NCBI GenBank assembly: GCA_021813725.1
Contig: JAKAJN010000012.1
Coordinates: 1 to 41,622 of the forward strand
DNA from: a bacterium
GTDB taxonomy: Bacteria > Gemmatimonadota > Gemmatimonadetes > Gemmatimonadales > Gemmatimonadaceae
DNA length: 41,622 bases
Direction: 5' to 3'
The notes under the pieces were generated by a model, which saw only the letters and a list, made by a program, of their open reading frames with translations, was not told the origin of the DNA and searched no databases. The first letter of the stretch is position 1, and each line of letters begins with the position of its first letter. Both the position numbers and the translations under genes were made by a program. Shown here piece by piece: positions 22,022-38,288 of this stretch.

Positions 22022-23461
22022 CTATCGCCGCGCGGATCGCAGGATGCCGTACCCCACCAGATTCAGGAGCACCACAACGGCAGCGATCTTGAGGCCGAAC
22101 AGGAGCGGGCTGGCGACCTGGATGATGGGGAACATCGCGAAACCGACGTAGGCCAGCGTCATGAACAGCCCCGACCACGAGGCGACCTTGAGCCAGGCCG
22201 GCGGGCGCGGCGTGATGCCGCGCAGGCCGAAGAGCGGGATGGCGAACATCACCACATACGCCAATGCGTAGAACATGCCGCTCGCGTTGAAGAGGAGCTG
22301 GAACGCCTCGGCCTGCCCGACGCCAATCAGACTCACCAGCGCGATGAGAAAGGAACTCGCTCCGACGACGAGAATCGAGTTGACGGGCGTGCGATACCGA
22401 TCGTGGAGCTTGCTGAACCAGGGCGGGAGCAACCGATCCCACCCGGCGACCATCGGCAGGCGCGTGACAGCGGTGAAGCTGACGCTCGCCTGCGCTACGC
22501 GCATCGCCAGCGTCATCAGGATGGCAATGGTGACGAGCGGTCCGGCAATGCCGAACGGCCCGAACCCGATTCGCAGGATCTGCGGCAACGGACCGATGAG
22601 GTCGATGTCCTCGGTGGGGATGTACGCGACGACGGTGCTGGTGCCGAGCACGAACATCAGCACGATGATCGGCGCCGCGATGAAGACCGACCGGGCCACC
22701 GACCGCGCCGGCGACCGCGTCTCACCGGCGAGGATGGCCATGTACTCGAAGCCGCTGAACGCGCCAAAGCCCATCTTGGCGAGGAGGTTCAGGTTGAGCA
22801 GCGTCAGCGCCGGCGCCGCCGTGCGCAGGGGGTGATACTCCTTGAGGTGCCCGCTCGAGAGGCCAATCCAGGGCAAGACGAACAGCGCGCCGAAAATCAG
22901 GAGCATCATCACGCCGCCGGCATTGTGCACCCACTTGCTGAGTGACAGCCCGATGGTCGACGCGACGACCATCAGCGACAGGATCACGAACGATGCGAGC
23001 GCCACGAACCAGCCGTTCTCGGTCATCCAGGAGGCACTCGGCCCGAGGGCGTACGACAGATACGTCGCCACCTGCAGGCCAATCTCGGACGTGAAGACAA
23101 TCACGTAGAGCCAGAGATTCCAGGCGAGCATGAAACCGACGGTCTGGTTGAAGCCGAGCTTGGCCCACTGATACAGCCCGCCCTCGAGCGGCATCAGGCG
23201 ATTGAGGTACAACACCACGGCGGCAGACGGGAGATAGAACAGCGCCAGCGCCGACAGCCACATCACCACGTGCGATGGCCCGAGCTTGCCGGCGACGCCG
23301 ATCCACGTCAGCCCAACGACAAAGAGGATCTGCGTGAGCGCGAGGTCCACCACCCCCAGCTCCTTCTTGAGGGTGGCGCTGTGCTCCTCCACCTGCGCCT
23401 CGGCGGCCGCAAGTTCGGCCGCCGAGGCCGGATGATGGCCGTGCCGCTCGTGCTCCGTCAT
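22022..23461 (-). CDS. APC-family amino acid permease
   Basis: 479 residues with about 12 membrane helices. A charged, His-rich cytoplasmic N-terminus (about 35 residues) precedes ELGVVDLALTQILFVVGLTW, the unwound first helix where APC transporters bind the substrate amine and carboxylate. MPLEGGLYQWAKLGFNQTVG and FGAFSGFEYMAILAGETRSP are conserved APC segments. It is the last gene of the operon; its ATG overlaps the M20 peptidase stop (ATGA, 23458-23461). Likely import of an amino acid or related amine whose breakdown uses the upstream enzymes. Substrate unknown. Confidence 0.9.
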   Translation of the reverse strand: MTEHERHGHHPASAAELAAAEAQVEEHSATLKKELGVVDLALTQILFVVGLTWIGVAGKLGPSHVVMWLSALALFYLPSAAVVLYLNRLMPLEGGLYQWAKLGFNQTVGFMLAWNLWLYVIVFTSEIGLQVATYLSYALGPSASWMTENGWFVALASFVILSLMVVASTIGLSLSKWVHNAGGVMMLLIFGALFVLPWIGLSSGHLKEYHPLRTAAPALTLLNLNLLAKMGFGAFSGFEYMAILAGETRSPARSVARSVFIAAPIIVLMFVLGTSTVVAYIPTEDIDLIGPLPQILRIGFGPFGIAGPLVTIAILMTLAMRVAQASVSFTAVTRLPMVAGWDRLLPPWFSKLHDRYRTPVNSILVVGASSFLIALVSLIGVGQAEAFQLLFNASGMFYALAYVVMFAIPLFGLRGITPRPPAWLKVASWSGLFMTLAYVGFAMFPIIQVASPLLFGLKIAAVVVLLNLVGYGILRSARR

Positions 23462-24843
23462 GCCAGCTCCCGTGCGAGGAGGTCCCAGAAACGTGCCCAG
23501 GCCGCGAGCCCTTCGCGCAGGCGAATCACCCGGAAGAACTCATTGGGGGCGTGATAATCTTCGTCGGACGTGGAGAAGGAGAAATAGACCGTGTCCATGT
23601 TCATGTGCCGCTTGAACAATTCCATGATCGGCACGGTGGCCCCCATCCGGACGATGAGCGGGTCCACGCCGTAGACCGCGCGCAGTGCCGCGGCGGCGGC
23701 GCGCAGGGCGGGATGCCCGGTGTCGATGTGCGCGGCCGGTGTGCCGTGATCGCCCGGGGTGATGGTGAGGCGTGTCCCCGGCGGCTGGTGGTGTTCGAGG
23801 TGCCGAGTGATGAGGCGCACGACCTCATCGGGATCCTGATCGGGGACCAACCGACAGGTGACCTTGGCGTGAGCCTCGCAGGGGATCACTGTCTTCTGCC
23901 CCGGTCCCTCGTATCCGCCCCACATGCCGTTCACTTCAAGCGTCGGGCGCGTCCACTGGCGCTCGAGAAGCGTGTATCCGGCCTCGCCATAACCCGGCGG
24001 CGCACCGACCTGCGCCAGGTAGTCGGCTTCGTTGAACGGAATGGCGGCAATGGCGGCGCGATCGGCGGCGCTCAGCTCACGCACGGTGTCGTAGAAGCCC
24101 TCCACGGCAATCCGTCCATCCGGATGATGGAATGATGCGACGAGCCGAGCCATCGCATGCAACGGATTGGCGACGCTGCCGCCATGCCGTCCCGAATGCA
24201 GGTCCTTGGATGCGGCAGTGAGCGTGAAGTTGAGGCCGGCCAAGCCGCGACTGGCCACCGTGATGGACGGTTCGGTCGGACGCCACATCGCGCCATCGGC
24301 CGAAATCACGAGGTCGGCGCGGAGCAATTCCTTGTTGGCCTCGATGAACGACTCGAGACTCGGACTGCCGATCTCCTCCTCGCCTTCGATGAGAAACTTG
24401 AGGTTCAGCGGCGGCGCACCGGCCGCGGCGAAGAACGACTCGGCGACCTTCATCGGGATGAGCACCGGTCCCTTGTCGTCGCTGACGCCGCGCGCGTAGA
24501 GCCGGCCATCGCGCACCGTGGGCGAGAATGGCGGCGAGGTCCACTTGTCGAGTGGATCGGGCGGTTGCACATCGTAGTGGCCGTAGATGAGCACCGTGGG
24601 CTTGCCTGGCGCACCCAGCCACTCGGCATAGACGACGGGATTCCGCGCCGTCGGCATCGTGCGGACCGTGATCGGGCCGACGGCGGCCAGTGTGCGCGCC
24701 ACCCACTGCGCCGCGACGGTCATATCCGCGGCGTGTGCGGGGTCGGTGCTGACGCTCGGTATGGAGGCAAACTCGACGAGTTGTGCCAGCGCACGCTCGG
24801 CGCCGGATTCGAGATGCGAGAGCACGGCATCGAGCGGTGTCAC
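23458..24843 (-). CDS. M20 family metallopeptidase (dipeptidase-like)
   Basis: 461 residues from GTG 24843. Two-zinc site residues are visible: His in LIYGHYDVQPPDP, Asp in RGVSDDKGP, Glu-Glu in LIEGEEEIGSPS, Asp in VISADGAMW and His near the end in STSDEDYHAPNEFF. The dimerisation domain insert carries DLHSGRHGGSVANPLHAMA. This matches the M20 carboxypeptidase/dipeptidase (CNDP/PepV-like) group, with no signal peptide, so cytoplasmic cleavage of dipeptides or N-acyl amino acids is likely. The start overlaps the SDR stop (GTGA, 24840-24843), which decides it over an ATG at 24882. Confidence 0.92.
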   Translation of the reverse strand: MTPLDAVLSHLESGAERALAQLVEFASIPSVSTDPAHAADMTVAAQWVARTLAAVGPITVRTMPTARNPVVYAEWLGAPGKPTVLIYGHYDVQPPDPLDKWTSPPFSPTVRDGRLYARGVSDDKGPVLIPMKVAESFFAAAGAPPLNLKFLIEGEEEIGSPSLESFIEANKELLRADLVISADGAMWRPTEPSITVASRGLAGLNFTLTAASKDLHSGRHGGSVANPLHAMARLVASFHHPDGRIAVEGFYDTVRELSAADRAAIAAIPFNEADYLAQVGAPPGYGEAGYTLLERQWTRPTLEVNGMWGGYEGPGQKTVIPCEAHAKVTCRLVPDQDPDEVVRLITRHLEHHQPPGTRLTITPGDHGTPAAHIDTGHPALRAAAAALRAVYGVDPLIVRMGATVPIMELFKRHMNMDTVYFSFSTSDEDYHAPNEFFRVIRLREGLAAWARFWDLLARELA

Positions 24844-25607
24844 TTGCCACCGTCCACACTGAGCACCTGCCCCGTGATCCAATTTGCGGCATCGGAGGCG
24901 AAAAAGAGCACCGCGTTGGCAATGTCGTCGGGGGTGCCGAGTCGCTTGAGGGCAATGCGCTCAACAAGCTCCCGCTGCCCGTCGGCGCCGTACGACTCCC
25001 ACTGCCGTTCGGTGCTCGGGTTGGAGCGCACGAAGCCAGGCGCGATGTTGTTGACCGTGATGCCCCACGGTCCCAACTCGTGCGCGAGCTGGCGTGTGAG
25101 TCCAATCTGTGCCGCCTTGGCGGAGGCATACGCCTGGATGCCCGTGAGCGAAATGCCAAGCCCGGCGCCGCTCGAGATGTTGATGATGCGTCCGCTGCGT
25201 TGCTCCTTCATGCCCGGAGCGACGGCCTGCGCACAGTAAAATGCGCCGGTGCAGTTGACATCGAAAATTGCCTGCCATTGCTCGGGGGCAATGTCCTCGA
25301 GTGGGCGCCCCACCTGGCCCAGCACGCCGCCGGCGTTGTTGACGAGCACGTGCACGGCCCCCGACGCCGCGCGGATTTCCGTGACGAGGCCGTCCACGGC
25401 CGGTTTGTGCCGCACGTCCACCGTGCGCACCTCACACAGCGCGCCGGCCTCGCGACAGAGGCGGCGCGTCTCCTGGAGTTCATCGTCGAGCACGTCACCG
25501 CCCCAGACGCGGGCGCCGTTACGGGCGAAGGCCAGTGCAATGGCGCGTCCAAAGCCATGCGCCGCGCCGGTAACGAGGACGGTCTTGTCGCGGAAGTCGA
25601 AGAACAC
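24840..25607 (-). CDS. Short-chain dehydrogenase/reductase
   Basis: 255 residues, classical SDR. Seen: TGAAHGFGRA (TGxxxGxG cofactor loop), VLVNNAGG, catalytic Ser in INISSGAGLG, and Tyr160/Lys164 in YASAK. It ends with WITGQVLSVDGGK, as in FabG-like enzymes. Asp38 in GGDVLDD at the end of strand 2 favours NAD(H) over NADP(H). GTG start at 25607, eight bases after the PanE-like stop. Substrate unknown; the operon suggests oxidation or reduction of a catabolic intermediate. Confidence 0.92.
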   Translation of the reverse strand: MFFDFRDKTVLVTGAAHGFGRAIALAFARNGARVWGGDVLDDELQETRRLCREAGALCEVRTVDVRHKPAVDGLVTEIRAASGAVHVLVNNAGGVLGQVGRPLEDIAPEQWQAIFDVNCTGAFYCAQAVAPGMKEQRSGRIINISSGAGLGISLTGIQAYASAKAAQIGLTRQLAHELGPWGITVNNIAPGFVRSNPSTERQWESYGADGQRELVERIALKRLGTPDDIANAVLFFASDAANWITGQVLSVDGGK

Positions 25608-25615
25608 GGATTCCC

Positions 25616-26632: not shown

Positions 26633-26644
26633 GGTTGGCGTCCG

Positions 26645-27355
<711 letters not shown>

Positions 27356-27471
27356 GCGGGAGTCCGTGGACGAGGGAAATGCGGGGGCGGACAAAACATG
27401 CGCCGCAGGCCGGCGGGACGCCACGGATAAGGGGCGATGACGCCTCCGCGCCGCCGGGACGGTTGCCGGCC

Positions 27472-27504
27472 TCGCGTGGATGACGCAGACTCGTCATCAC
27501 GCGA
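27472..27504. promoter_or_regulatory. Long hairpin in the creatininase/membrane-protein divergent region
   Basis: CGCGTGGATGACG (27473-27485) pairs with CGTCATCACGCG (27492-27503) around a six-base loop, with one bulged G and an extra closing T-A pair. It sits 47 bases upstream of the small membrane gene and 117 bases upstream of the creatininase start. No T tract follows. Likely an operator or 5'-leader structure. Confidence 0.45.
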
Positions 27505-27551
27505 AGGCGCGATCTACGACGCCGTTCCTCTTGTTCAAGGCAACTCGCACC

Positions 27552-27965
27552 ATGAATCAGGTTACGCAGGTCACGTTCCGCTTCGACCCCGAACGCGCCG
27601 CCGCCGTTGTCGCGGTCGTATTCGGCATTGCGACCATCCTGGCCGGCGGCTCCGTGCTACTCGGTCGCGATCCAGGGTACCTCGTCTACCGCCCGCTGTT
27701 GATCTTCAACACGGCGATGGGATTCGTCTATGCGGGGACGGGGCTCGCCGCCTGGCGACGAGACGGCGCCGCAGTCACCGCGGCCATGGCGATTCTCGTG
27801 GTGAACATCGCGGTGCTGGTGCGGGTGGTCTATCTCTTCCTGACCACGCGTGATATGGTGGCCGAAGACAGCGTGCGCGCGATGACCCTGCGCACGATGG
27901 TCTGGCTCATACTCTGGGCCCTGCTCGGGTGGGTGCAGCGAAAGAAGGCGTCAGCGACCGACTAG
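27552..27965 (+). CDS. Small four-helix membrane protein
   Basis: 137 residues from ATG 27552. Four hydrophobic stretches: AAAVVAVVFGIATILAGGSV, YLVYRPLLIFNTAMGFVYAG, an Ala/Val-rich third (TAAMAILVVNIAVLVRVVYL) and MVWLILWALLGWV, with a basic end (RKKASATD). I recognise no family. It is oriented against both flanking operons and its stop overlaps the hypD stop by four bases on the other strand. It separates the creatininase operon from hypED. Confidence 0.7.
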   Translation: MNQVTQVTFRFDPERAAAVVAVVFGIATILAGGSVLLGRDPGYLVYRPLLIFNTAMGFVYAGTGLAAWRRDGAAVTAAMAILVVNIAVLVRVVYLFLTTRDMVAEDSVRAMTLRTMVWLILWALLGWVQRKKASATD

Positions 27966-30352
27966 AACTCCCCGTGCTCCGTGCGGGCGATGATCTCGTC
28001 CTGAAGTGCCTCGCTGAGGTCGCAGAAGTAGTCGCTGTACCCGGCCACGCGCACGATGAGATCCCGGTGCGCCGACGGGTCGGCCTTCGCTTCACGCAAC
28101 TGTTCGGCGGTGACGACGTTGAACTGCATATGGTGCCCGCCGAGCTTGAAATAGCCACGGACCAGGGCATGCAGGTTGTCGATGCCGTGCTCGCCGGCGA
28201 GCAGGGTGGGCGAGAACTTCATGTTCAGCAGGGTGCCGCCGGTCTTGACGTGGTCCATGCGCGCCGCCGACTGCAGGACAGCGGTCGGGCCGTGGCGATC
28301 GGCGCCCTGCACCGGCGAGATGCCTTCGGACAGCGGCAGGCCACTGCCGCGCCCGTCGGCTGACGCGAGGCAGACCTCGCCGAAGTACACGTGGCAGGTA
28401 GTGGGGAGCATCTCGAGCCGATATGCGCCGCCCTTGATGTTGGGGCGCCCGTCAATCGCATCGAACAGCATGTTGAAGGTGCGAGTCATCAGCGCGTCGG
28501 CATACGGATCGTCGTTGCCATACTTGTGCGTCTTGTGCACGAGGCGCTGGCGCAGCACCTCCTCGTGGTGGAAGTTCGCGTCGAGCGCCGCGACAAACTG
28601 CTTAAGCGAGCGCTCTCCCGTCTCGAAGACGAGTTCCTTGAGTGCGGAGAACGAATCGGTGACCGAGCCGATGCCCACCGCCTGGATGAACGTGTTGTTG
28701 TACCGCGCGCCGCCGGCGTTGTAGTCCTTGCCGCGCACAATACAGTCGTCGGTGATGACGCTCAGGAAGGTGTGCGGCATGCGCGTGGCGTAGAGCCGCT
28801 CGATGAGTTGGTTACCGCGCACCTTGATGTCCAGCACGTGGCGCACCTGCGCTTCGAATGCCGTGAAGAGATTCTCGAAGGTGTGAAACTGCGCCGGATC
28901 GCCGGTGCGCGCGCCAATGAACTTGCCTGTGCGCACGTCGAAGCCATCGTGCAGGGCCAACTCGAGCATCTTCATCAGGTTGAAGTAGCCGGTGAGGATG
29001 TACGCCTCCTTGCCGAAGGCGCCCACCTCCACACAGCCGGAGCATCCGCCCTCGCGCGCATCCTCGAGTGACTTCCCCTGACGAAGCTGCTCCTGAACCA
29101 CGACGTCGGCATTGAAGAGCGACGGGAAACCGTAGCCGTTGCGGATGACGCGCAGGGCGTGCTTGAGCACGGCGTCGGGCGTCAGCCGGGACACCTGCAT
29201 GTTGCTGGACGGCTGGAGGAGGTGGAAGTCGTCAATCACCTCGAGCAGGAGGTGCGTGACCTCGTTGGATCCGTCCCGTCCGTCGCGCAGCAACCCCGCC
29301 AGGTTGATGTTGGCAAAATCGGTATAGGTGCCGCTTTCGGCAGCAGTCACGCCGACCTTCGGCGGGGCGGTGTGGTTGTTGAACTTGATGAAGAAGCATT
29401 CGAGGAGTTCGCGTGCCTCCTCGCGCATGAGCGACCCGTCCGCGAGGCCGGCGTCGTAGAACGGCGCGAGATGCTGGTCGAGATGGCCGGGCGAGAACGC
29501 ATCCCACCCATTCAACTCGGTGATGACGGCGAGGTGCGCGAACCAGTACGTCTGCAATGCCTCGTGGAAGTTGCGTGGCGGATTGGCCGGTACGTGGCGG
29601 CAGACGGCGGCGATCTTGAGCAGCTCCATCCGGCGCTCGTCGTCGTCGGTCGTGAGTGCTTCGACGGCCGCCAGGTCGGCGTAACGCTCCGCATACCGCA
29701 TCACGGCATCGCAGGCGAGGCTCATCGCCCGCAGCTGCTCGCGCTTGTCGAGCGCCTCCGCGTCGTGCTCGAAATCGAGCGCGGCAATCGCCTCGGCGAT
29801 GTCGGCCTTGAAGCCGAGCATTCCCTTGTGGTAGAGCTTGCCGTCGGCGACGGTATGTCCCGGTGCGCGCTGCTCCATGAATTCGGTGAAGCAACCGGCG
29901 TCGTAGGCATCGTGCCACTCCGCCGGGAGCTCCGCCATCATCACGTCGCGCAAGGAGCGCCCGTGCCAGTAGGGGATGATGTCGCGTTCGTACTGTGCGA
30001 TGACGTCGGCGGCCACCTTATACCGCGTCTTCGGACGCGAGTCGAGGATGCGCAGGTCCTCGACGCTGTGGCAGGTCAGCTCGGGATAGGTGGGAACTTC
30101 CTTGGGGCGCGGGCCGCGTTCACCGACAATGAGCTCGCCGTCGCCGAGGTAAAGGACCTTCGTGTCGCAGAGTTCGTAGAAGGCCCTGGCGCGCATCATC
30201 GGCGGCGAGTACTTGCCGAGATTGGCCTTGTAGAACGCCGTGATGATGCTGGCACGCTCGCCGCTGATGCGCGGCACCGCATCGAGCGACTCGCGACGCA
30301 GGTGCTCGGTACGCGGCGTGGTCGCGGTGCTGGCGGCATGAACGGTGGTCAC
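27962..30352 (-). CDS. hypD: Glycyl radical enzyme, trans-4-hydroxy-L-proline dehydratase
   Basis: 796 residues. Full glycyl-radical architecture: active-site Cys440 in GCSGCVEVGAFGKEAYILTG and radical Gly771 in VRVAGYSDYF near the C-terminus. The active-site residues I recall for Clostridioides difficile HypD (F152, H160, D278, S334, F340, C434, E436, Y450, T645, G765) each appear here six positions later: F158, H166, D284, S340, F346, C440, E442, Y456, T651, G771. This constant offset separates it from pyruvate formate-lyase (Cys-Cys), CutC and the glycerol and diol dehydratases. HypD removes water from trans-4-hydroxy-L-proline to give pyrroline-5-carboxylate under anoxic conditions. The GTG start overlaps the activase stop (GTGA) and has GGAGGA eight bases upstream. 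I see no P5C reductase in the window. Confidence 0.9.
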   Translation of the reverse strand: MTTVHAASTATTPRTEHLRRESLDAVPRISGERASIITAFYKANLGKYSPPMMRARAFYELCDTKVLYLGDGELIVGERGPRPKEVPTYPELTCHSVEDLRILDSRPKTRYKVAADVIAQYERDIIPYWHGRSLRDVMMAELPAEWHDAYDAGCFTEFMEQRAPGHTVADGKLYHKGMLGFKADIAEAIAALDFEHDAEALDKREQLRAMSLACDAVMRYAERYADLAAVEALTTDDDERRMELLKIAAVCRHVPANPPRNFHEALQTYWFAHLAVITELNGWDAFSPGHLDQHLAPFYDAGLADGSLMREEARELLECFFIKFNNHTAPPKVGVTAAESGTYTDFANINLAGLLRDGRDGSNEVTHLLLEVIDDFHLLQPSSNMQVSRLTPDAVLKHALRVIRNGYGFPSLFNADVVVQEQLRQGKSLEDAREGGCSGCVEVGAFGKEAYILTGYFNLMKMLELALHDGFDVRTGKFIGARTGDPAQFHTFENLFTAFEAQVRHVLDIKVRGNQLIERLYATRMPHTFLSVITDDCIVRGKDYNAGGARYNNTFIQAVGIGSVTDSFSALKELVFETGERSLKQFVAALDANFHHEEVLRQRLVHKTHKYGNDDPYADALMTRTFNMLFDAIDGRPNIKGGAYRLEMLPTTCHVYFGEVCLASADGRGSGLPLSEGISPVQGADRHGPTAVLQSAARMDHVKTGGTLLNMKFSPTLLAGEHGIDNLHALVRGYFKLGGHHMQFNVVTAEQLREAKADPSAHRDLIVRVAGYSDYFCDLSEALQDEIIARTEHGEF

Positions 30353-31275
30353 GAGGAAAGTCCTCCAATGGTGGCCACGAGGTCGTGCGCGGCGAAGCGC
30401 GCGACGATGGCCTCGAGCTGGGCGGTCGACGGGGAGACGGTGCCGTGCAGGGTGTAATGCTTGCCGAGCCGGGCGAACTTCGGTTCGGCGCTCGGGTGGT
30501 ACGGCAGCAGATTCACCGGGAGTGCACGGTTCAGGGAACGGAGAAAGCGGGCGGTGGCGTCGATGTTGGCGTCATCGGCGTTGACACCCGGAATCACGGG
30601 CACGCGAATGTGGACATTCGCGTGCCAGGCACAGAGCGCCGTGAGGTTAAACAGAATCCGCTCGTTCGAGGCGCCGGTGGCGGCCTCATGGCGCACGGGA
30701 TCCATCAACTTCAAGTCATAGAGCACGAGGTCCGCGACGGCGGCGGCGTCCCGTAGATTCTCCCAGGGGGCAAAACCGCAGGTGTCGAGGGCCGTGTGGA
30801 TGCCCGCGCCTCGAAGTCGACGCAGCACGTCAGTGACGAATGGCGCCTGCACCAGCGGCTCGCCGCCGCTGATGGTCACGCCGCCGCCCGATTCGTCAAA
30901 GAAGGTCCGGTCCCGGAGCGCGCGCTCCACCAGTCGCGCCGCGTCAATGCGCTCGCCGACGAGTTGCAACGCGCCGGTCGGGCAGAGGTCAACGTCACAT
31001 TCGGTCTTGTTGACGACGGTGGGAAGCGCGAGTTCGTCGTCGGAACAGCGCCCGCAACGCATGCACCGATGCTGCAGGCGCACGAACGTCGGAGCTAGTT
31101 CCTGGCTCTCCGGGTTGTGGCACCACGAACAGGCAAGCGGGCACCCCTTCATGAAGATGGTGGTGCGCACGCCAGGGCCGTCGTGCACGGAAAAGCGCTG
31201 GACGTTGAAGATGAGGCCACTCGGGACGGCCGTGGCCGTGGAGCACACGGGGGCGTCTACGACTGCGGCGGACAT
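30349..31275 (-). CDS. hypE: Glycyl radical enzyme activase (radical SAM), HypE-type
   Basis: 308 residues from ATG 31275. Radical-SAM cluster Cys45-x3-Cys49-x2-Cys52 in KGCPLACSWCHNPES, preceded by FSVHDGPGVRTTIF as in PflA-like activases. A ferredoxin-like insert has Cys71, Cys74, Cys77, Cys93 and Cys98 (CMRCGRC and CDVDLCP), as in activases of CutC/HypD-type enzymes, though with fewer cysteines than needed for two full CX2CX2CX3C clusters. SAM contacts follow in GVTISGGEPL. It generates the glycyl radical on the enzyme encoded immediately downstream (4-base overlap). The start overlaps the gntR end by 19 bases, so gntR-hypE-hypD form one operon. Confidence 0.93.
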   Translation of the reverse strand: MSAAVVDAPVCSTATAVPSGLIFNVQRFSVHDGPGVRTTIFMKGCPLACSWCHNPESQELAPTFVRLQHRCMRCGRCSDDELALPTVVNKTECDVDLCPTGALQLVGERIDAARLVERALRDRTFFDESGGGVTISGGEPLVQAPFVTDVLRRLRGAGIHTALDTCGFAPWENLRDAAAVADLVLYDLKLMDPVRHEAATGASNERILFNLTALCAWHANVHIRVPVIPGVNADDANIDATARFLRSLNRALPVNLLPYHPSAEPKFARLGKHYTLHGTVSPSTAQLEAIVARFAAHDLVATIGGLSS

Positions 31276-32012
31276 TCCGCGAAGTAGTAGGCGTGAATGA
31301 ACGGCTCCTGCACGGTGAACGACCAATGGACGTGCTGGAGGTGGTCGGCGGCCGCGTCAATGTCGCCGAGCGCGAGGAGGGCCAGCAGATCTTCGTGTTC
31401 GGTGACCGAGTGTTGTTCCCACGCCTGGACCATCGCTGCGCGACGCGGCCAGTCATAGAGGCGCTGCTTGAGCAGGTGCACCTGGGCGACGAGGCGCGCG
31501 TTGGTCGAGCGGCGCAGGTAGGTGTCGTGGAAGGCCAGGTTGGCGACGTAGTAGCGGTCGAAGTCGCGCGCGGCGACGGCGACGTTCATTTCTACGTCGA
31601 GGGCGCGCATCTGGGCGAAGTCCTCATCGGTCAGCGAGTAGCCGACATCGCGAAGCGCCGCGGCCTCGAGTGCACCGATGATTTCGTAGAAGTGACGAAT
31701 GTCGTCGAGCGTGAGCTCGTTGAGCCGAAAGCCGCGGCGCGGAAGGATGGTGACGAATCCCTGGCTCTCGAGGTTGAGCAGGGCCTCGCGCAGCGGTGTC
31801 CGGCTGACGCCGAGTCGGCTGGCGAGTTCGTTGAGGTCAATGAAGACGCCCGGCTTGAGACCGCCGCTGGCCATTTCGGCGCGGAGGTAGTCGTAGACTT
31901 GCTCGCGGAGCGAGCGAGTCGGGTTCGCCGGATCGGTCAGCCGGGGGGGCTGGTGCTTCTTATGGATGCGGCGTGGCGGTTTCCGGCGCGCGGGGGTCTT
32001 GGGGCGCGCCAT
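31257..32012 (-). CDS. GntR-family transcriptional regulator (FCD subfamily)
   Basis: 251 residues. A basic tail (MARPKTPARRKPPRRIHKK) precedes a winged helix-turn-helix: LREQVYDYLRAEMASGGLKP, LNELASRLGVSRTPLREALL and LESQGFVTILPRRGFRL (about residues 34-100). The C-terminal FCD effector domain (about 105-235) has all-helical character with the metal-binding Asp/His pattern (FDRYYVANLAFHDTYL, then EQHSVTEHEDLLALLALGD). FCD regulators usually sense carboxylic acids or amino acids and repress the adjacent genes. It heads the hypED operon and diverges from the GH127 operon, so it is the natural candidate regulator of both. Confidence 0.93.
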   Translation of the reverse strand: MARPKTPARRKPPRRIHKKHQPPRLTDPANPTRSLREQVYDYLRAEMASGGLKPGVFIDLNELASRLGVSRTPLREALLNLESQGFVTILPRRGFRLNELTLDDIRHFYEIIGALEAAALRDVGYSLTDEDFAQMRALDVEMNVAVAARDFDRYYVANLAFHDTYLRRSTNARLVAQVHLLKQRLYDWPRRAAMVQAWEQHSVTEHEDLLALLALGDIDAAADHLQHVHWSFTVQEPFIHAYYFAECPPQS

Positions 32013-32019
32013 ACGTCAT

Positions 32020-32031
32020 CTAATATATCAG
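32020..32031. promoter_or_regulatory. AT-rich palindrome upstream of gntR (candidate operator)
   Basis: CTAATATATCAG differs from its own reverse complement only at the third position and its partner. It lies eight bases upstream of the gntR ATG in an AT-rich patch of an otherwise GC-rich region. Its minus strand contains TATATT, a possible -10 box, so binding here would block gntR-hypED transcription. Confidence 0.4.
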
Positions 32032-32074
32032 TTCATTGGCCCTGACGCTAGTTCGGTAAGTTGTTGATATAGTT

Positions 32075-32094
32075 GCACATAGAGAACACATACG
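32075..32094 (+). promoter_or_regulatory. Repeated motif in the gntR/GH127 divergent region, copy 1
   Basis: GCACATAGAGAACACATACG resembles GCACTTAGAACACACGC at 32196-32212 (shared GCAC-W-TAG and AACACA). The two copies are 121 bases apart between the divergent gntR and GH127 starts. A shared regulator site is possible. Confidence 0.35.
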
Positions 32095-32195
32095 CGAAGA
32101 TGCATCGTGCTACGAAGAACCGGGGTGACCCTTTGCGCCGGCCCTCTACGACGCAGCGATGGTGGCCCTGATCCCGCCGGCGCGTTCAATTCTCT

Positions 32196-32212
32196 GCACT
32201 TAGAACACACGC
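32196..32212 (+). promoter_or_regulatory. Repeated motif in the gntR/GH127 divergent region, copy 2
   Basis: GCACTTAGAACACACGC, second copy of the motif at 32075-32094, ending 40 bases upstream of the GH127 ATG. Confidence 0.35.
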
Positions 32213-32252
32213 AGTCGACCGTGGGCGGCCGACACTCGTCCTCGAGACCACA

Positions 32253-34286
32253 ATGAGCAATGTTGACCGCCGCGGATTCCTCGCGGGCGTCGCCGCGACT
32301 GTGGCGGCGACGACGGCATTTGACCCGCTGCACGCCGGCGAAACAGAGCAAGTCGCGGAACGCGAACGCACCGATCGCGCCGCGGGGCTCGCTCCACTCG
32401 CCTTCACGCCACTGCCACTCGGGGCCCTACGTCCGCGCGGGTGGTTGCTCAACCAACTGCGCATTCAGCTGAACGGTCTGAGCGGGCATCTCGACGAGTT
32501 CTGGCCTGACGTGGCCCAGTCGCAGTGGTTTGGTGGAAGCGCCGAGGGCTGGGAGCGAGCGCCGTACTGGCTGGATGGCGCGATTCCGCTGGCGTGGATT
32601 CTGGACGATGCGACGCTGAAGGGACGCATCACGCGGTACGTGAACTTCATCGTGGACCATCAGCGAGCGGACGGATGGTATCACGTGTATCCAGAAGACG
32701 CGGTGGCCAAGCGCTATGACATGTGGGCCATCCTGCTGGTGAACAAGGTGCTGGTGCAGTATCACGAGGCAACCAATGATGCCCGCGTGCTCGATGCGGT
32801 GACGAAGAGTCTGCGCGCACTCTCCACCGGACTCGACCGCACACCGCTGTACGACTGGGGACGCACGCGGTGGTTCGAGGGACTGATCAGCATCTACTAT
32901 GTCTATCAGCGGCGGCCGGAGCCGTGGCTGCTCGACCTGGCACGCAAGCTGCGCGCCCAAGGTGTGGATTTCGAAACGCTCTACACCACCAACGAAGACA
33001 TGAAGGTTCCCACGCCGCGCCGCGGCCTGTGGAAATGGACCAAGCACGTGGTGAACGCGGGCATGTCGCCCAAGGCGGCAGCGCTGAGCTGGCGACTGGA
33101 CCAGCGCGCCAACGACCGCGCCTGGCCGCGCCAGATGATTGAGTTCCTTGACCGCTACCACGGACAGGTGAACGGCATGTTCACCGGCGACGAGACGCTC
33201 AGCGGCAAGAACCCACTGCAGGGGACGGAACTCTGTTCGGTTGTCGAGTTCATGTACTCACTCGAGACTCTCGTCGCGGTATTTGGCGACGCGTATTTCG
33301 CTGACCGGCTGGAACGCGTGGCGTTCAACGCGTTGCCGGCCACGCTCTCGCCTGACATGTGGGCGCACCAATACGATCAGCAGGTGAATCAGGTGCAGTG
33401 CACCATCAATCCGAACCACGGGTGGAGTTCGAACGGCGGCGAGGCGAACCTGTTCGGTCTCGAGCCGAACTACGGGTGCTGCACGAGCAACATGCATCAG
33501 GGGTGGCCGAAGTTTGCGGCATCGCAATGGATGCGCACCGCGGACAGCGGGTTCGCCGCGATCTCCTACGCGCCGAGCCAATTGGCGGTCGACGGTGGAG
33601 GGCAGACGGTGGAGATTGTGTGCGATTCGGCGTATCCGTTTCGCGAGACAATTGGCATCACGGTGCGCACGGAGCGGCCGACGCGATTCCCGGTGCTGCT
33701 GCGCATCCCGGCGTGGAGCGAGGGCGCCACCGTGCAGATCGGAGATGGCGCGACAGTGCCCGCGCGAGCGGGCACGTGGCACCGCGTGGACCGCGAATGG
33801 CGCGGGAGCACCTCGGTGACGCTGCGGTTCCCGATGAAAGCCAGGGTCACGACGCGCTACAATGACAATGTGGCCATCGAACGGGGGCCGCTGGTCTTTT
33901 CGCTGCGAATCGCCGAAGACTGGAAGCGGGTGAATGCGGACAAGCCGCATCGCGAGATGCCGCATGCGGACTACGAAGTGCGACCGACATCACCGTGGAA
34001 CTACGGCATCGTGATGGCAAAGGGCCAGGCGCAAGGATTGACGTTCGAGGAACAACCCATCGGCGACCAACCGTTCTCACCGAGTGGCGCTGGGGTGGTG
34101 GCGAACGTGCAGGCGCGACGCGTGCCGAGTTGGGGGATCGTGCGCGACTGGGCGGGCGAGATCAGCTCGTCCGATGCGGCCTGGGCCGACGCGTCGAAGG
34201 TCGTCTCGCGAGAACCCATCGAAACCGTGGAATTGATTCCGTACGGTTGCACGAACATTCGAATCACGGAGTTTCCCCGCGTATGA
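32253..34286 (+). CDS. GH127-type glycoside hydrolase (beta-L-arabinofuranosidase family), Tat-exported
   Basis: 677 residues. The N-terminus has a twin-arginine signal (DRRGFLAGVAATVAATTAF). The (alpha/alpha)-barrel has the zinc-cysteine catalytic site of GH127: Glu326-x-Cys328 in GTELCSVVEF and Cys409-Cys410 in NYGCCTSNMHQGWPKF. In the Bifidobacterium longum enzyme HypBA1 the matching residues are Glu338, Cys340, Cys417 and Cys418, with Cys417 as nucleophile. That enzyme releases L-arabinose from beta-Ara2 linked to hydroxyproline in extensin glycopeptides. GH127 also has members of unknown or different specificity, so the substrate is inferred. The stop overlaps the GH2 start (ATGA), and the gene diverges from gntR-hypED. 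Confidence 0.9.
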   Translation: MSNVDRRGFLAGVAATVAATTAFDPLHAGETEQVAERERTDRAAGLAPLAFTPLPLGALRPRGWLLNQLRIQLNGLSGHLDEFWPDVAQSQWFGGSAEGWERAPYWLDGAIPLAWILDDATLKGRITRYVNFIVDHQRADGWYHVYPEDAVAKRYDMWAILLVNKVLVQYHEATNDARVLDAVTKSLRALSTGLDRTPLYDWGRTRWFEGLISIYYVYQRRPEPWLLDLARKLRAQGVDFETLYTTNEDMKVPTPRRGLWKWTKHVVNAGMSPKAAALSWRLDQRANDRAWPRQMIEFLDRYHGQVNGMFTGDETLSGKNPLQGTELCSVVEFMYSLETLVAVFGDAYFADRLERVAFNALPATLSPDMWAHQYDQQVNQVQCTINPNHGWSSNGGEANLFGLEPNYGCCTSNMHQGWPKFAASQWMRTADSGFAAISYAPSQLAVDGGGQTVEIVCDSAYPFRETIGITVRTERPTRFPVLLRIPAWSEGATVQIGDGATVPARAGTWHRVDREWRGSTSVTLRFPMKARVTTRYNDNVAIERGPLVFSLRIAEDWKRVNADKPHREMPHADYEVRPTSPWNYGIVMAKGQAQGLTFEEQPIGDQPFSPSGAGVVANVQARRVPSWGIVRDWAGEISSSDAAWADASKVVSREPIETVELIPYGCTNIRITEFPRV

Positions 34287-37132
34287 GCTTCACGGTGCAG
34301 GGTGCAGGGAACAACAGAGGGTGCCTGGTGCAGGCGCGGTGGAATACGACGGCTGTTCTGCTGCTCCTCTTCAGCACGATTGGCGGGGCACAGAAATCAC
34401 CCGCAGACGCGATACCGCTCCCCGAGCATCCACGCCCGGATTTCGCGCGCGCGGACTGGATGAACCTGAACGGCCGTTGGCGCTTTGCCTTCGACCCGGC
34501 CGACACCGGTGTGCAGGCGGGGTGGCCGCAAAACGGTTTGCCGGGCAACCGCGAGATCGTGGTGCCCTTCTCGTGGGGATCGAAGCTGAGCGGCGTGCCA
34601 GACAGCGCGGACATCGGCTGGTACGCGCTTCGCGTCGACGTGCCGCCAACCTGGCGCGGAAAGCGGATGTTCCTGGTCTTCGGTGCGAGCGACTGGAAGA
34701 CGACCGCCTGGCTGGACGGCGTGAAACTCGGCGAGCATCAGGGCGGGTACACGCCGTTCTCGTTCGAACTCACGTCCTCGGTGCGGTCCGGCGCCGCACA
34801 GCGACTCGTGGTGCGCGTGGACGACACGAATCACGCGTTCAAGCTTGAAGGCAAGCAGGGATACGGCAAGGCGCGCGGGATGTGGCAGACGGTGTATCTC
34901 GAGGCGCGCGGCAGCGACCCGATTGAAGCGGTGCACTTCACGCCACGGGCAACGCTGGACGGTGTGGGGGTCGAGCTGCGACTGCGCGATCCGGCACCGA
35001 GCGAGCTGGTTGCGTCACTCGCGTTCACCAACCGCGACAGCCAGCCCGTGGCGACGATGCGCATAGCGAAGGGTGCGCGCACGGCGCGGCTCGATGTCGC
35101 CATGCCCGGCGCGCGAACGTGGACGCTTGACGACCCATTCCTGCACGAGTGCGCCGTCACGGTGACCGGTACCGGCCTCGTGGACGATCGCGTGAAGACG
35201 TACTTCGGGATGCGCACCATCGGCGTGACGACGCTCCCTGGCACGAGCATTCCCTACGTCGCGCTGAACGGCGAACCAGTCTACCTGCAACTCGCGCTCG
35301 ACCAGGCGTATCACCCGGACGGTTTCTACACCTTCCCGACGGACAGCGCGCTGAAGCACGAGATCCTGCTGGCGCGGCAGATTGGCCTCAATGGGCTGCG
35401 CGAACACATCAAGATCGAGGCGCCGCGCAAGCTGTACTGGGCCGACCGGCTGGGTGTGCTGATCATGGCCGACGTGCCGAACTGGTGGGGACCGCCGGAC
35501 TCAGCGGCGTTCGCCGAGCACGAGTACGCGCTGCGTGCGATGATTGACCGCGACTACAATCACCCGGCGGTCTTTTCGTACGTGATGTTCAATGAGACGT
35601 GGGGATTGCACACGAAAGTCGGAGACCGCAATCCGTACCTTCCCGAGACGCAGCGCAAGGTGGCGAGCGTCTACCGGTTGGCGAAGTCACTCGACCCCAC
35701 GCGACTGGTGGAGGACAACTCCATCTGCTGCGGGATGGGGCACACGGAGACGGACCTGAACAGCTGGCACGATTACCTCCCAGGTTGGCGCTGGCAGTCG
35801 CACGTGCAGCGAGTGAGCGACAGCACCTTCGCCGGGTCGCCGTTCCACTTCATGCCCGGGTACCAGCAAGGCAATCAGCCGATGCTGAACTCCGAGTTCG
35901 GCAACGTGTGGGGGTACAGCGGCAGCACGGGCGACGTCGATTGGAGCTGGGACTATCGTCGCGCGATTGATGCGTTTCGCCGGCAACCGAAAGTGAGCGG
36001 GTGGCTGTACACCGAGCACCACGACGTGATCAATGAGTGGAACGGCTACTGGCGCTTCGACCGCACGTGGAAGGAGACGGGGTTTGGCGATATCGTGCCG
36101 GCGATGACGCTGCGCGACCTGCACGCGCCATTCTACATCGCGGTGGGCGACTCGGTGTTGAGCCACGATGTTGCCGCCGGGGCGCACGTGACGGTGCCGC
36201 TGTACGCATCGTTCCTCAGCGGGAGCCAGACGCCCGGTGATTCGCTGACTGTCAGAGCCGAGTTGGGTGGCTGGAACGCGATTGGTGAGCGGAAGACCTA
36301 TGGCACCTACGCGATGCGCATTCCGTATCGGCCGTGGATGTCGACGCCGCTCACCCCGCTGACGATTACGGTGCCGGACGAACCGAGCTTGAGCGTGCTG
36401 GCCGTGCGGGTGGAAGACGGCGCCGGCAACGTGCTGGCGAGGAATTTCAGCGCGTTCGTTGTATCGGGGGCAACGCCGGCCAGTGGTAAGACGGCGGACG
36501 GGCGCGCCGTTCGAACGACCAGCGTTGCCGCCACGTCAACGACGGATGGGCGCTGGTCGCTCAGGCAGTGGACCGTGCTGGACAAGAAGTACGACGGTGC
36601 GGGAAGCGGATTCGTGGAGTACCGGCTTCCGTGGCCGAAGGATCTTTCGGCAAGCCAGGTGGAGAACGCGACGTTTCTGGTGGAGGCGTCGGCCAAACGC
36701 CTGAACGGAAAGGACCGCGACACGACGCGCTCGCAGGGCGACTATATGCGAGGCGGTGGCTATCACGACCGCAGTGCGAACAAGAACAGCTATCCGATGA
36801 CGAGCAGCACGTACAAATACCCGAGTGCGGTGACGGTCCGCATCAACGGTGTGCTCGCGGGCCAGTACGGGTTGAGCGACGACCCGGCTGACTCGCGCGG
36901 CATCCTGAGTTGGCATGCGCAGTTGTACGACGGACTGCTGCGTGAAGCGGGATCGTACGGCGAGTTACTGCGTGTGGCACTGACGCCGGGGATGATCGCT
37001 GATGGCGAACGGTCGGGTTTCGTGACGGTGCGGCTCGAAGTGTCCGATGCGCTGCCCGGCGGACTTGCCATCTATGGACGGCAGTTTGGACGATACCCGG
37101 TGGACCCGACGGTAGTATTCGTGCTCAAGTAG
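34283..37132 (+). CDS. GH2 family glycoside hydrolase, exported
   Basis: 949 residues from ATG 34283, overlapping the GH127 stop. A hydrophobic stretch (TTAVLLLLFSTIGGAQ) suggests export. A sugar-binding jelly roll (about 50-210) has WMNLNGRWRFAFDP and GIGWYALRVD-like sequence. An Ig-like domain follows (about 212-315), then the TIM barrel with acid/base Glu438 in VMFNETWG and nucleophile Glu538 in LNSEFGNVWG. YTEHHDVINEWNGYWRF is also typical. A beta-rich C-terminal region (about 640-949) is probably carbohydrate-binding. GH2 includes beta-galactosidases, beta-mannosidases, beta-glucuronidases and alpha-L-arabinopyranosidases, and I cannot choose from sequence alone. The next gene, a mutarotase, follows after 28 bases. 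Confidence 0.9.
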   Translation: MSFTVQGAGNNRGCLVQARWNTTAVLLLLFSTIGGAQKSPADAIPLPEHPRPDFARADWMNLNGRWRFAFDPADTGVQAGWPQNGLPGNREIVVPFSWGSKLSGVPDSADIGWYALRVDVPPTWRGKRMFLVFGASDWKTTAWLDGVKLGEHQGGYTPFSFELTSSVRSGAAQRLVVRVDDTNHAFKLEGKQGYGKARGMWQTVYLEARGSDPIEAVHFTPRATLDGVGVELRLRDPAPSELVASLAFTNRDSQPVATMRIAKGARTARLDVAMPGARTWTLDDPFLHECAVTVTGTGLVDDRVKTYFGMRTIGVTTLPGTSIPYVALNGEPVYLQLALDQAYHPDGFYTFPTDSALKHEILLARQIGLNGLREHIKIEAPRKLYWADRLGVLIMADVPNWWGPPDSAAFAEHEYALRAMIDRDYNHPAVFSYVMFNETWGLHTKVGDRNPYLPETQRKVASVYRLAKSLDPTRLVEDNSICCGMGHTETDLNSWHDYLPGWRWQSHVQRVSDSTFAGSPFHFMPGYQQGNQPMLNSEFGNVWGYSGSTGDVDWSWDYRRAIDAFRRQPKVSGWLYTEHHDVINEWNGYWRFDRTWKETGFGDIVPAMTLRDLHAPFYIAVGDSVLSHDVAAGAHVTVPLYASFLSGSQTPGDSLTVRAELGGWNAIGERKTYGTYAMRIPYRPWMSTPLTPLTITVPDEPSLSVLAVRVEDGAGNVLARNFSAFVVSGATPASGKTADGRAVRTTSVAATSTTDGRWSLRQWTVLDKKYDGAGSGFVEYRLPWPKDLSASQVENATFLVEASAKRLNGKDRDTTRSQGDYMRGGGYHDRSANKNSYPMTSSTYKYPSAVTVRINGVLAGQYGLSDDPADSRGILSWHAQLYDGLLREAGSYGELLRVALTPGMIADGERSGFVTVRLEVSDALPGGLAIYGRQFGRYPVDPTVVFVLK

Positions 37133-37160
37133 GGGGCAGGGAACGGAGACAGGGGAGAGA

Positions 37161-38288
37161 ATGAGACGCTTTGTGACATTGGTGCTGGCCGGTGTGTTCA
37201 CGACGGGATGCGGTGCGGATGTGGCAACGATCGGAGCAAGCATGACGCGAACACCTTTCGGCACGGCGCCGGGCGGGCAGGGCGTTGAACTCATCACGCT
37301 GACCAATGCGCACGGCGTGGAACTGCGCGCGATGACCTATGGCGCGATCATCATCTCGCTGAAAGTCCCGGACAGGACGGGGAAACTGGGCGATGTGGTG
37401 CTCGGCTACGATTCGCTCGCCGGGTACGTGAAATCGTCGCCTTATTTCGGTGCGGTCGTCGGACGCTATGCCAATCGCATCGCCAAGGGGGAGTTCACTC
37501 TCGATGGCACGGCATACTCGCTGGCCATCAACAATGGCCCCAACGCCCTGCACGGCGGACTCAAGGGGTTCGACAAGGTGGTCTGGCAGGCCGAGTCGCT
37601 GCCAAGCCCCGACGGGACGGGCGTGCGCTTTCACTACGTGAGCACGGATGGCGAGGAAGGATACCCGGGCACGCTCGATGCGACGGTGACGTACACGCTC
37701 ACCGATTCAAATGAAGTGCGCATCTCATACGAGGCCACCACCGACAAGCCCACGCCGGTGAACCTGACGCAGCATTCGTACTTCAACTTGGCCGGGCGCG
37801 GCGACGTGCTGGAGCATATCCTCCAGATCAACGCCGATCGGATCGTGCCGGTCGATTCGACCTTGATCCCGACCGGTCAACTGATGCCGGTGAAGGGCAC
37901 GCCGTTCGACTTCACGACGCCTCATGCCGTCGGCGAGCGCATTGACGCCGCGGACCAGCAAATCACGTTTGGCAAGGGATACGACCACACGTTCGTGCTC
38001 ACGCGTGCCGATACGGGGCTCGTGCTCGCGGCGGTGCTGAAAGACCCGACCAGTGGCCGCGTGCTCGAAGTGCGCACGACAGAGCCGGGCGTGCAGTTCT
38101 ACACGGGAAACTTCCTCGACGGCACGCTGACGGGAAAAGGTGGCGTGGTCTATCAGCGCCGGACGGGGCTCTGTCTCGAAGCGCACCACTTTCCCGACTC
38201 GCCAAACCAGCCGCAGTTCCCGAACACGATCCTCAGGCCGGGAGAGACGTACCGGTCGCGGACGGTGTGGAAGTTCGGGGTGGAGTAA
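37161..38288 (+). CDS. galM: Aldose 1-epimerase (mutarotase), lipoprotein form
   Basis: 375 residues. A lipobox signal (MRRFVTLVLAGVFTTGC, Cys17) places it in the envelope, as in several mutarotases of polysaccharide-utilisation loci. Catalytic and substrate residues: His in PNALHGGLKGFD, the catalytic His in NLTQHSYFNLAG, Asp in GYDHTFVL and Glu in TTEPGVQFYTGN. It interconverts the alpha and beta anomers of galactose, glucose or arabinose. GGGGAG lies eight bases upstream of the ATG. It is last in the GH127-GH2-galM unit and would act on sugars released by the two hydrolases. Confidence 0.92.
   Translation: MRRFVTLVLAGVFTTGCGADVATIGASMTRTPFGTAPGGQGVELITLTNAHGVELRAMTYGAIIISLKVPDRTGKLGDVVLGYDSLAGYVKSSPYFGAVVGRYANRIAKGEFTLDGTAYSLAINNGPNALHGGLKGFDKVVWQAESLPSPDGTGVRFHYVSTDGEEGYPGTLDATVTYTLTDSNEVRISYEATTDKPTPVNLTQHSYFNLAGRGDVLEHILQINADRIVPVDSTLIPTGQLMPVKGTPFDFTTPHAVGERIDAADQQITFGKGYDHTFVLTRADTGLVLAAVLKDPTSGRVLEVRTTEPGVQFYTGNFLDGTLTGKGGVVYQRRTGLCLEAHHFPDSPNQPQFPNTILRPGETYRSRTVWKFGVE

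What the first reader, a model, noticed from the sequence alone, without database searches (positions are those of the whole stretch)
22022..38288. Possible plant hydroxyproline-rich glycoprotein utilisation locus
A HypD-type dehydratase operon (gntR-hypE-hypD) diverges from a GH127-GH2-galM operon. Characterised GH127 beta-L-arabinofuranosidases release L-arabinose from hydroxyproline-linked arabinosides of extensins, whose hydroxyproline is trans-4-hydroxy-L-proline, the HypD substrate. Downstream lie an M20 dipeptidase and an APC permease. The set could strip sugars outside the cell, import the peptide or amino acid, and ferment the hydroxyproline. I know of no described locus that joins GH127 and HypD. 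A P5C reductase or dehydrogenase must lie elsewhere.
Basis: partly seen in the sequence, partly recalled or inferred. Interest (0 to 1): 0.85.

Follow-up and report, generated by a model that had tools for sequence, protein, structure and literature searches.

The report
Hydroxyproline operon beside separate sugar operon
An uncultured Gemmatimonadota genome carries a genuine hydroxyproline-fermenting operon, with a conserved control site and an unusual activator enzyme, lying beside a secreted sugar-cleaving operon; the proposed joint plant-glycoprotein locus is not supported as one unit.

Summary
HypD scores 1171 bits against a 1100 cut-off, with 12 of 12 checked active-site residues conserved. 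The GH127-like protein has the clan's fold and conserved Cys/Glu residues, but is a remote branch whose substrate sequence does not reveal.

(1) Close GH127 near HypD was seen only in the own genus and one close relative (G295), and each gene also occurs without the other (G075; G275, G296). (2) A palindromic site lies 5' of hyp operons in 31 of 116 loci, four phyla by record titles. At 52 distinct GH127 genes it appears only where the hyp operon is next door (2). M20 and permease form a separate unit, seen beside HypD otherwise only in G127.

In Acidobacteriota the link is no stronger with HypD than with other glycyl radical enzymes (small numbers), suggesting shared anaerobic life.

Two by-products look new: the operator, and a HypE clade with one auxiliary four-cysteine set instead of two (19 of 19 close relatives, 0 of 80 others).

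The parts
27962..30352 (-). [quoted passage not shown]
   Evidence: NF043068 1171.4 bits over cut-off 1100; PDB 6vxc/6vxe 921 bits; 12 of 12 checked active-site residues conserved (residues from PMC7077986)
30349..31326 (-). hypE, HypD activase with a shortened ferredoxin insert (one four-Cys set)
   Evidence: TIGR02494 306.8 bits over cut-off 174; NF043069 306 bits below cut-off 425; Cys pattern
31257..32012 (-). gntR, FCD-type GntR regulator, proposed repressor of hypE-hypD (HypR-like)
   Evidence: PF00392 and PF07729 over cut-off; adjacent to hypE in several relatives
32014..32032 (-). proposed operator of gntR-hypE-hypD (core CTGATATATTAG at 32020-32031), possibly over the -10 region
   Evidence: conserved 5' of hyp operons in 31 of 116 loci; single place in the window
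32253..34286 (+). GH127-like cysteine glycosidase (clan GH-P fold), Tat-like signal, substrate unknown
   Evidence: PF07944/PF20736 over cut-off; invariant E314, E326, C328, C409, C410 in 27 sequences; fold match to GH127/GH146
34283..37132 (+). GH2 glycosidase, start overlaps the GH127 stop
   Evidence: PF02837 and PF02836 over cut-off; ATG at 34283; best solved relatives a beta-glucuronidase and a beta-D-galactofuranosidase
37161..38288 (+). aldose 1-epimerase (galM-like), lipoprotein-like N-terminus
   Evidence: PF01263 344 bits; N-terminus read from the translation
27480..27965 (+). 161-aa ORF without Pfam match between hypD and the creatininase-like gene
26645..27424 (-). creatininase-family amidohydrolase, first gene of a separate unit
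   Evidence: PF02633 138 bits
25616..26632 (-). ketopantoate-reductase-like (PanE/ApbA) protein
   Evidence: PF02558; TIGR00745 158 bits over cut-off 141
24840..25607 (-). short-chain dehydrogenase
   Evidence: PF13561 203 bits
23458..24882 (-). M20 dipeptidase
   Evidence: NF006053 541 bits over cut-off 441
22022..23461 (-). APC-superfamily amino acid permease
   Evidence: PF13520 89 bits

Best explanation
Three separate units lie side by side. Unit 1, gntR-hypE-hypD, is an autoregulated operon for anaerobic hydroxyproline breakdown. The activase puts a glycyl radical on HypD; HypD dehydrates trans-4-hydroxy-L-proline to P5C; an unlinked P5C dehydrogenase oxidises P5C to glutamate; and the GntR protein, bound to a palindrome at its own promoter, keeps the operon off until hydroxyproline or a derivative is present. 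Unit 2, GH127-GH2-galM, exports enzymes that cleave a glycan, perhaps one with furanosides; GH127-galM is found with or without HypD. Unit 3, creatininase-PanE-SDR-M20-APC, handles peptides or amides and may feed hydroxyproline in. Shown by sequence: gene identities, HypD active site, conservation of the site 5' of a part of the hyp operons, occurrence of each half without the other. Inferred: transcription units, repression, inducer, flux to glutamate, and all substrates of units 2 and 3.
For: HypD over its cut-off and all 12 checked residues kept. P5C dehydrogenase over its cut-off on another contig; P5C reductase dimer domain not found. Operator at 18 bits or more 5' of hyp operons in 31 of 116 HypD loci examined, 20 of the 105 not used to build the matrix, against 1 of 116 Markov-resampled controls; with gntR between, it lies 1.57-1.71 kb before hypD, otherwise 0.95-1.03 kb, with one exception at 0.83 kb (L256). 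At GH127 genes it was found in 2 of 81 loci (52 distinct genes), both next to the hyp operon. GH127-galM is syntenic with HypD absent (G075/L167). HypD without GH127 in G275 and G296. In L114 other genes (SCO1, heme-copper oxidase) follow hypD in place of unit 3.
Against: In the class sample, genomes with this GH127 branch mostly carry HypD (14 of 17; 25 of 295 overall; Fisher 8.5e-15; genus-within-family test p = 0.0012), more than two unrelated units would predict unless lifestyle or ancestry explains it. Divergent linkage within about 10 kb is kept in the four genomes where both lie on one stretch (G000, G127, G197, and the close relative G295). 85 of 116 HypD loci lack the site at this score, and in the window the outer arms do not match each other (GAACT/AGATG), unlike in L114, L033 and L035. 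A site 221 bp away could still act on GH127. P5C reductases lacking the dimer domain cannot be excluded. Absences rest on draft genomes.
Confidence: 0.75

Rival explanations
1. One reading: GH127-GH2 strip arabinose and other sugars from hydroxyproline-rich glycoproteins outside the cell, peptides enter through the APC permease, M20 releases hydroxyproline and HypD ferments it; one functional locus.
For: Genome-level co-occurrence of this GH127 branch with HypD in the class sample (14 of 17) and of close relatives (at least 59% identity) in Acidobacteriota (8 of 12). Signal-bearing GH127 with conserved Glu/Cys residues. Algal hydroxyproline-rich glycoproteins are a proposed substrate of lake bacteria (PMC4454575).
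Against: No shared operator seen. Linkage limited to one genus and a close relative among the stretches seen. Each half occurs without the other. In Acidobacteriota the GH127 branch is in 2 of 25 genomes with only other HypD-model hits and 8 of 70 with HypD, no difference (p = 1, small numbers). The 42-50% identity group shows no enrichment (4 of 22). GH127 covers several activities, and this one is 13-17% identical to the GH127/GH146 structures it matches.
Confidence: 0.15
2. The GH127/HypD co-occurrence reflects a shared niche: anaerobic or low-oxygen degraders of plant, algal or animal detritus gain both kinds of gene independently.
For: Acidobacteriota: GH127 of at least 59% identity in 10 of 95 genomes with any HypD-model hit against 2 of 300 without (p = 1.9e-5), but no difference between HypD and other hits. 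Canonical GH127 proteins (PF07944 at 200 bits or more) also show a mild excess of HypD in the class sample (9 of 52, p = 0.017). GH127 neighbours in other families are mixed: LacZ-type GH2, PFK, GDSL esterase, GH123, BNR, serpin, M16.
Against: In the class sample, genomes holding only other GH127-family proteins show no HypD excess (2 of 54), so the strong effect is specific to one branch there.
Confidence: 0.6
3. Hydroxyproline reaches HypD from peptides such as collagen fragments through unit 3 (M20, APC) and, in one relative, an S15-family hydrolase; the glycosidases are irrelevant.
For: Unit 3 follows hypD in the same order in G127, with an S15-family hydrolase gene between.
Against: Apart from G127, unit 3 was not seen beside HypD in the 100 stretches, single weak SDR or PanE hits aside; many are cut by contig ends. 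No operator copy lies before unit 3 in the window. The S15 protein matches the CocE/NonD subfamily (369 bits) far better than X-Pro peptidase models (75 bits, below cut-off).
Confidence: 0.3

Closest known systems
[quoted passage not shown] difficile type, PDB 6vxc/6vxe)
   Same: HypD over the family cut-off, all 12 checked catalytic and binding residues kept, adjacent activase
   Different: Activase below the equivalog cut-off with one four-Cys set in its insert. Product P5C probably goes to glutamate by a P5C dehydrogenase; no P5C reductase dimer domain found. Own FCD-GntR and palindrome.
HypR, GntR-family regulators of aerobic hydroxyproline catabolism (S. meliloti and other Proteobacteria, PMC5343134; Streptomyces, PMC6608401; passages read)
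   Same: GntR-family regulator (FCD type in Streptomyces) of hydroxyproline catabolic genes, autoregulated; in Streptomyces the site covers its own -10 region, about 200 bp from a divergent gene
   Different: Here beside a glycyl radical enzyme; palindrome CTGATATATTAGATATCAG-like, unlike the Streptomyces motif CTNTGC(A/C)ATGTCAC. The Proteobacterial motifs were not compared.
GH127/GH146 cysteine glycosidases (HypBA1, Ara127N, BT1003, BT3674, Bll3HypBA1)
   Same: Fold (TM 0.59-0.67) and conserved Glu/Cys residues
   Different: 13-17% identity, no nearest activity: BT1003 and Ara127N come first, others close behind. In Bifidobacterium a GH146 is the enzyme described for Araf-beta1-Hyp on the backbone, the GH127 HypBA1 acting on released Araf-beta1,2-Ara (PMC10850190, passages).
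GH127-based hydroxyproline-rich glycoprotein degradation proposed for Latescibacteria (PMC4454575)
   Same: Same inference from GH127 in bacteria of anoxic lake water
   Different: HypD is not mentioned in the passages I read

Membership tests
[quoted passage not shown]
   1171.4 against 1100 bits
[quoted passage not shown]
   12 of 12 identical (residues from PMC7077986)
[quoted passage not shown]
   needs anaerobic enzyme assay
Glycyl radical enzyme activase | Radical-SAM CxxxCxxC motif and subfamily score | tested here: met
   TIGR02494 306.8 against 174 bits; motif found
HypD activase equivalog NF043069 | Score over cut-off 425 | tested here: not met
   306 bits
Ferredoxin-domain activases with two auxiliary clusters | Two CxxCxxCxxxC sets | tested here: not met
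   one set C-x2-C-x2-C-x18-26-CP
GH127 | Pfam GH127 domains over cut-off | tested here: met
   PF07944 50.9 (cut-off 24.9), PF20736 52.7 (cut-off 24.2)
GH127 | Cys3-Glu zinc site and Cys nucleophile | tested here: met
   E326, C328, C409, C410 and E314 invariant in 27 sequences; assignment to HypBA1 numbering is inference
GH127 beta-L-arabinofuranosidase acting on Hyp-arabinosides | HypBA1 substrate-site residues and activity | not tested
   the N-terminal half was barely aligned by phmmer; the fold search gives no residue map
HypR-type regulator | FCD-GntR next to hydroxyproline genes with a conserved site at its own promoter | tested here: met
HypR-type regulator | Binds the site and is released by hydroxyproline or a derivative | not testable with these tools
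   needs EMSA
   close GH127 seen near HypD only in the own genus and a close relative; 41 of 100 stretches have 5 kb or more on both sides
   no operator 5' of GH127 except where the hyp operon is adjacent; sequence test only, no expression data
   strong in the class sample, not HypD-specific in Acidobacteriota

The most novel reading that the evidence does not exclude
A dispersed, cross-phylum programme for hydroxyproline-rich glycoproteins: one branch of GH127-like enzymes, secreted, deglycosylates algal or plant hydroxyproline-rich proteins, and a HypR-like FCD-GntR controls a HypD whose activase has been cut to a single auxiliary cluster. The two genes travel in the same genomes (14 of 17 in the class sample) and in one genus have come to lie side by side.
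Probability: 0.15. Interest if true: 0.7.

Novelty: new variant of a known kind. Interest (0 to 1): 0.4.

Why it matters
It points to anaerobic hydroxyproline use in uncultured Gemmatimonadota and Acidobacteriota. It gives a specific, testable operator by which hyp regulons can be mapped. It also names a natural activase clade with half of the usual auxiliary cysteines, which bears on the open question of what the auxiliary clusters of glycyl radical enzyme activases do (called largely unknown in PMC10239695 and unknown in PMC11528403; passages). Showing that the GH127 neighbour is probably incidental avoids a false pathway annotation.

Tried and rejected
Rejected: a single operon from gntR to the permease (opposite-strand ORF 27480-27965; other genes in place of unit 3 in L114). 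PanE-like protein as a stand-in P5C reductase: it is a ketopantoate-reductase relative, is seen beside HypD otherwise only in G127 (weak PanE hits in L095 and L103), and the dimer domain is missing in 33 of 39 genomes of the family anyway. GH2 as an ordinary LacZ: the best solved relatives are a beta-glucuronidase and a beta-D-galactofuranosidase. Substrate of GH127 from fold: undecided. Clustering of ORFs around HypD: apart from HypD, HypE and the regulator (14 loci) two further clusters reached 13-14 of 99 loci at scattered positions; I did not annotate them. I did not fetch the rest of the genome to look for further operator copies.

Limits of the counts: the 300-bit limit and the identity groups (59% or more, 42-50%, 34-38%) were set after seeing the tables. 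The 295- and 396-genome samples are drawn by the tool; 'Acidobacteriota' for the second rests on the record title of its centre (L066, Vicinamibacterales). That centre, G320, was dropped because it was chosen for having both genes. G135 (117 bits over 188 positions) is probably not HypD; with it dropped the Fisher test gives 3.8e-15. Acidobacteriota HypD was counted as 66 over cut-off plus 5 fragments (my rule: about 1.2 bits per position or more), minus the centre. In the 100 stretches, L050 is probably another glycyl radical enzyme and L034 and L131 hold the same gene. In one search I gave 50 of 80 HypD loci, chosen by phylum: 40 have a GH127 match at E of 0.001 or less, 23 above 300 bits; without HypD-free controls this says little. 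In one search I fetched 20 of the 32 listed HypD places. The strata use genera printed only. One search counts 99 distinct inserts; HypE without both flanking motifs or with short inserts were dropped. Kinship of G295 and G296 is not told by the tool; I call them close relatives from 83-86% HypD identity.


Full report
What is there. The window is contig C32 of a 3.0-Mb, 94%-complete genome. HypD relatives at 83-86% identity are labelled Gemmatimonadota/Gemmatimonadetes MAGs (L053, L114), so I take the phylum to be Gemmatimonadota (inference). HypD scores 1171.4 bits over a cut-off of 1100, is closest to PDB 6vxc/6vxe (921 bits), and keeps all 12 residues checked against the HypD structure paper (PMC7077986, outline and passages).

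Fate of the product. P5C reductase (dimer domain PF14748) was not found in the own genome, while the same search rings in 12 of 14 control genomes. It was found in 6 of 39 genomes of the family, 5 over cut-off. A P5C dehydrogenase does exist on contig C152: TIGR01236, 748 bits against a cut-off of 613.6. Glutamate is therefore the more likely product than proline (inference).

The sugar operon. The GH2 ATG (34283) overlaps the GH127 stop (34286), and galM follows. The GH127 protein begins with a twin-arginine-like signal and galM with a lipobox-like signal (read from the translations). Pfam scores for GH127 are low but over cut-off. In an alignment of 27 relatives E314, E326, C328, C409 and C410 are invariant. 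The AlphaFold model (mean pLDDT 85) matches GH127 and GH146 structures with TM-scores of 0.59-0.67 and 13-17% identity, BT1003 and Ara127N first. The substrate is not decided. The GH2 is nearest to a beta-glucuronidase and a beta-D-galactofuranosidase among solved chains.

Is GH127-HypD a conserved neighbourhood? In 100 stretches brought in by HypD searches (L033-L132) close GH127 relatives appear only in L035 (own genus, G197) and L114 (close relative, G295). Weak GH127-like hits (51-66 bits) appear in L065, L071 and L077. Only 41 of the 100 have 5 kb or more on both sides of HypD, and 31 have 8 kb or more, so misses are possible. Of six same-genus genomes in the class sample, five have HypD and five have the GH127 orthologue at 76-80% identity or the window's own. 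G000 has them adjacent, as does L114. In G127 and G197 an operon of MacB-, HlyD- and NtrC-type genes lies between. G190 has them on separate contigs with a HypD only 66% identical. G075 has GH127-galM-DASS-Vps10 without HypD. G275, and G296 reached through L053, have HypD without GH127. The genes are therefore separable, with the caution that these are drafts.

Is control shared? Comparing the region 5' of gntR in relatives revealed a palindromic site. The window and L114, L035 and L033 carry CTGATATATTAG 7 bp before the gntR ATG. The outer arms match each other in L114 and L035 (CATCT...AGATG) and, with other letters, in L033 (CAACT...AGTTG), but not in the window (GAACT...AGATG). Loci labelled Acidobacteria, Eisenbacteria and other genomes of the class carry CTGATATATTAGATATCAG-like sites. 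A matrix from 12 sites finds 31 of 116 HypD loci at 18 bits or more in the 2.2 kb before hypD: 11 were used for training, 20 are among the other 105. Markov-resampled controls give 1 of 116. Hits include two Synergistota-labelled loci (L106, L109), with no gntR seen beside hypE. The other 85 loci, among them the Verrucomicrobia- and Planctomycetes-labelled ones, have no site at this score. At GH127 genes the site occurs in 2 of 81 loci (52 distinct genes): the window and L114, where the hyp operon is the neighbour. The window holds one place only, so unit 3 lacks it too. In Streptomyces, HypR, an FCD-type GntR, has a site over its own -10 region about 200 bp from a divergent gene, and the authors considered an indirect effect on that gene more likely (PMC6608401, passages). 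The geometry here is similar (221 bp to the GH127 ATG).

Co-occurrence by genome. In 295 genomes of the class, HypD-model matches occur in 25 and GH127 relatives above 300 bits in 17; 14 have both (Fisher 8.5e-15). Leaving out the own genus, 10 of 12 (1.2e-11); for the closest branch alone (60% identity or more), 7 of 9 (4.3e-7), or 3 of 4 without the own genus (0.0011); by genus, 7 of 9 against 14 of 121 (1.8e-6). A within-family genus shuffle, limited to printed genera, gives 7 observed against 3.8 expected, p = 0.0012. Genomes with only other PF07944 proteins show no excess, 2 of 54; all genomes with a canonical GH127 (200 bits or more) show a mild one, 9 of 52, p = 0.017. In 395 Acidobacteriota (centre dropped) HypD occurs in 70. 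The group at 59% identity or more has 8 of 12 with HypD (p = 1.8e-4), the 42-50% group 4 of 22 (no excess), the 34-38% group 16 of 19, perhaps one lineage. The control that matters: the 59% group is in 8 of 70 HypD genomes, 2 of 25 genomes with only other hits of the HypD model, taken as other glycyl radical enzymes, and 2 of 300 with none. The link there is with glycyl radical enzymes in general, on small numbers. Shared anaerobic life is the simplest reading; a functional link is not excluded.

A variant activase. HypE misses its equivalog cut-off (306 against 425). Its ferredoxin-type insert holds one set C-x2-C-x2-C-x18-26-CP rather than two CxxCxxCxxxC sets. All 19 distinct HypE at 54% identity or more share this, and none of the 80 below does (58 match the two-set pattern; 22 fit neither pattern strictly). 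The HypD partners of the 19 are at least 75.9% identical to the window's. The records are labelled Gemmatimonadota, Acidobacteria/Holophagaceae/Vicinamibacterales, and one each Bacteroidetes and Planctomycetota. Two auxiliary sets are common in these activases and their function is largely unknown (PMC10239695, PMC11528403; passages). Apart I made no search for prior reports of one-set activases.

Literature. Four papers held both HypD and its enzyme name (listing). GH127 plus hydroxyproline plus extensin gave eight (listing). One proposes hydroxyproline-rich glycoprotein degradation by Latescibacteria from GH127 (PMC4454575, passages); another links GH127 of sponge symbionts to algal extensins (PMC8163846, passages). 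Searches for glycyl radical enzymes with hydroxyproline and metagenome, HypD with gene cluster or glycoside hydrolase, Gemmatimonadota with hydroxyproline, and GntR with hydroxyproline showed no described GH127-HypD locus or hypD operator in the listings. Only open-licence papers are held, and the 2017 discovery paper was not readable.

Verdict. The hydroxyproline operon is a new member of a known kind with two variant features, the operator and the activase. The joint glycoprotein locus is not supported as a unit. The genome-level link deserves one proper phylogenetic test.

Noticed in passing
window 30349-31326: HypE activase has one auxiliary four-Cys set instead of two; 19 of 19 distinct HypE at 54% identity or more share this, 0 of 80 others.
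   Followed up: partly
window 32014-32032: Palindromic site 5' of gntR, found before hyp operons in 31 of 116 loci labelled Gemmatimonadota, Acidobacteria, Eisenbacteria and Synergistota; it contains TGATATATT, which could be an extended -10, so the message may be nearly leaderless (the promoter reading is inference).
   Followed up: partly
L033:11139-13304: An S15-family hydrolase (CocE/NonD type by NCBIfam) lies on the opposite strand between hypD and the creatininase unit in G127.
   Followed up: no
own genome and family: P5C reductase dimer domain PF14748 not found in 33 of 39 genomes of the family; how these bacteria make proline is unclear.
   Followed up: no
G190/L034 and G275/L036: Two same-genus genomes carry a HypD only 66-67% identical to the window's, with a two-set activase at 46-47% identity, suggesting replacement or independent acquisition.
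   Followed up: no
L114:8905-16034: In L114 the genes after hypD include SCO1, heme-copper oxidase subunit I and cytochrome b types instead of unit 3.
   Followed up: no
window 38316-41622: A DASS symporter gene and a sortilin/Vps10-BNR gene follow galM; both are kept beside galM-GH127 in G127 and G075.
   Followed up: no
L175:3136-4428: A serpin gene lies next to the GH127 relative in a family f4 genome, with a homologue beside GH127 in L150.
   Followed up: no
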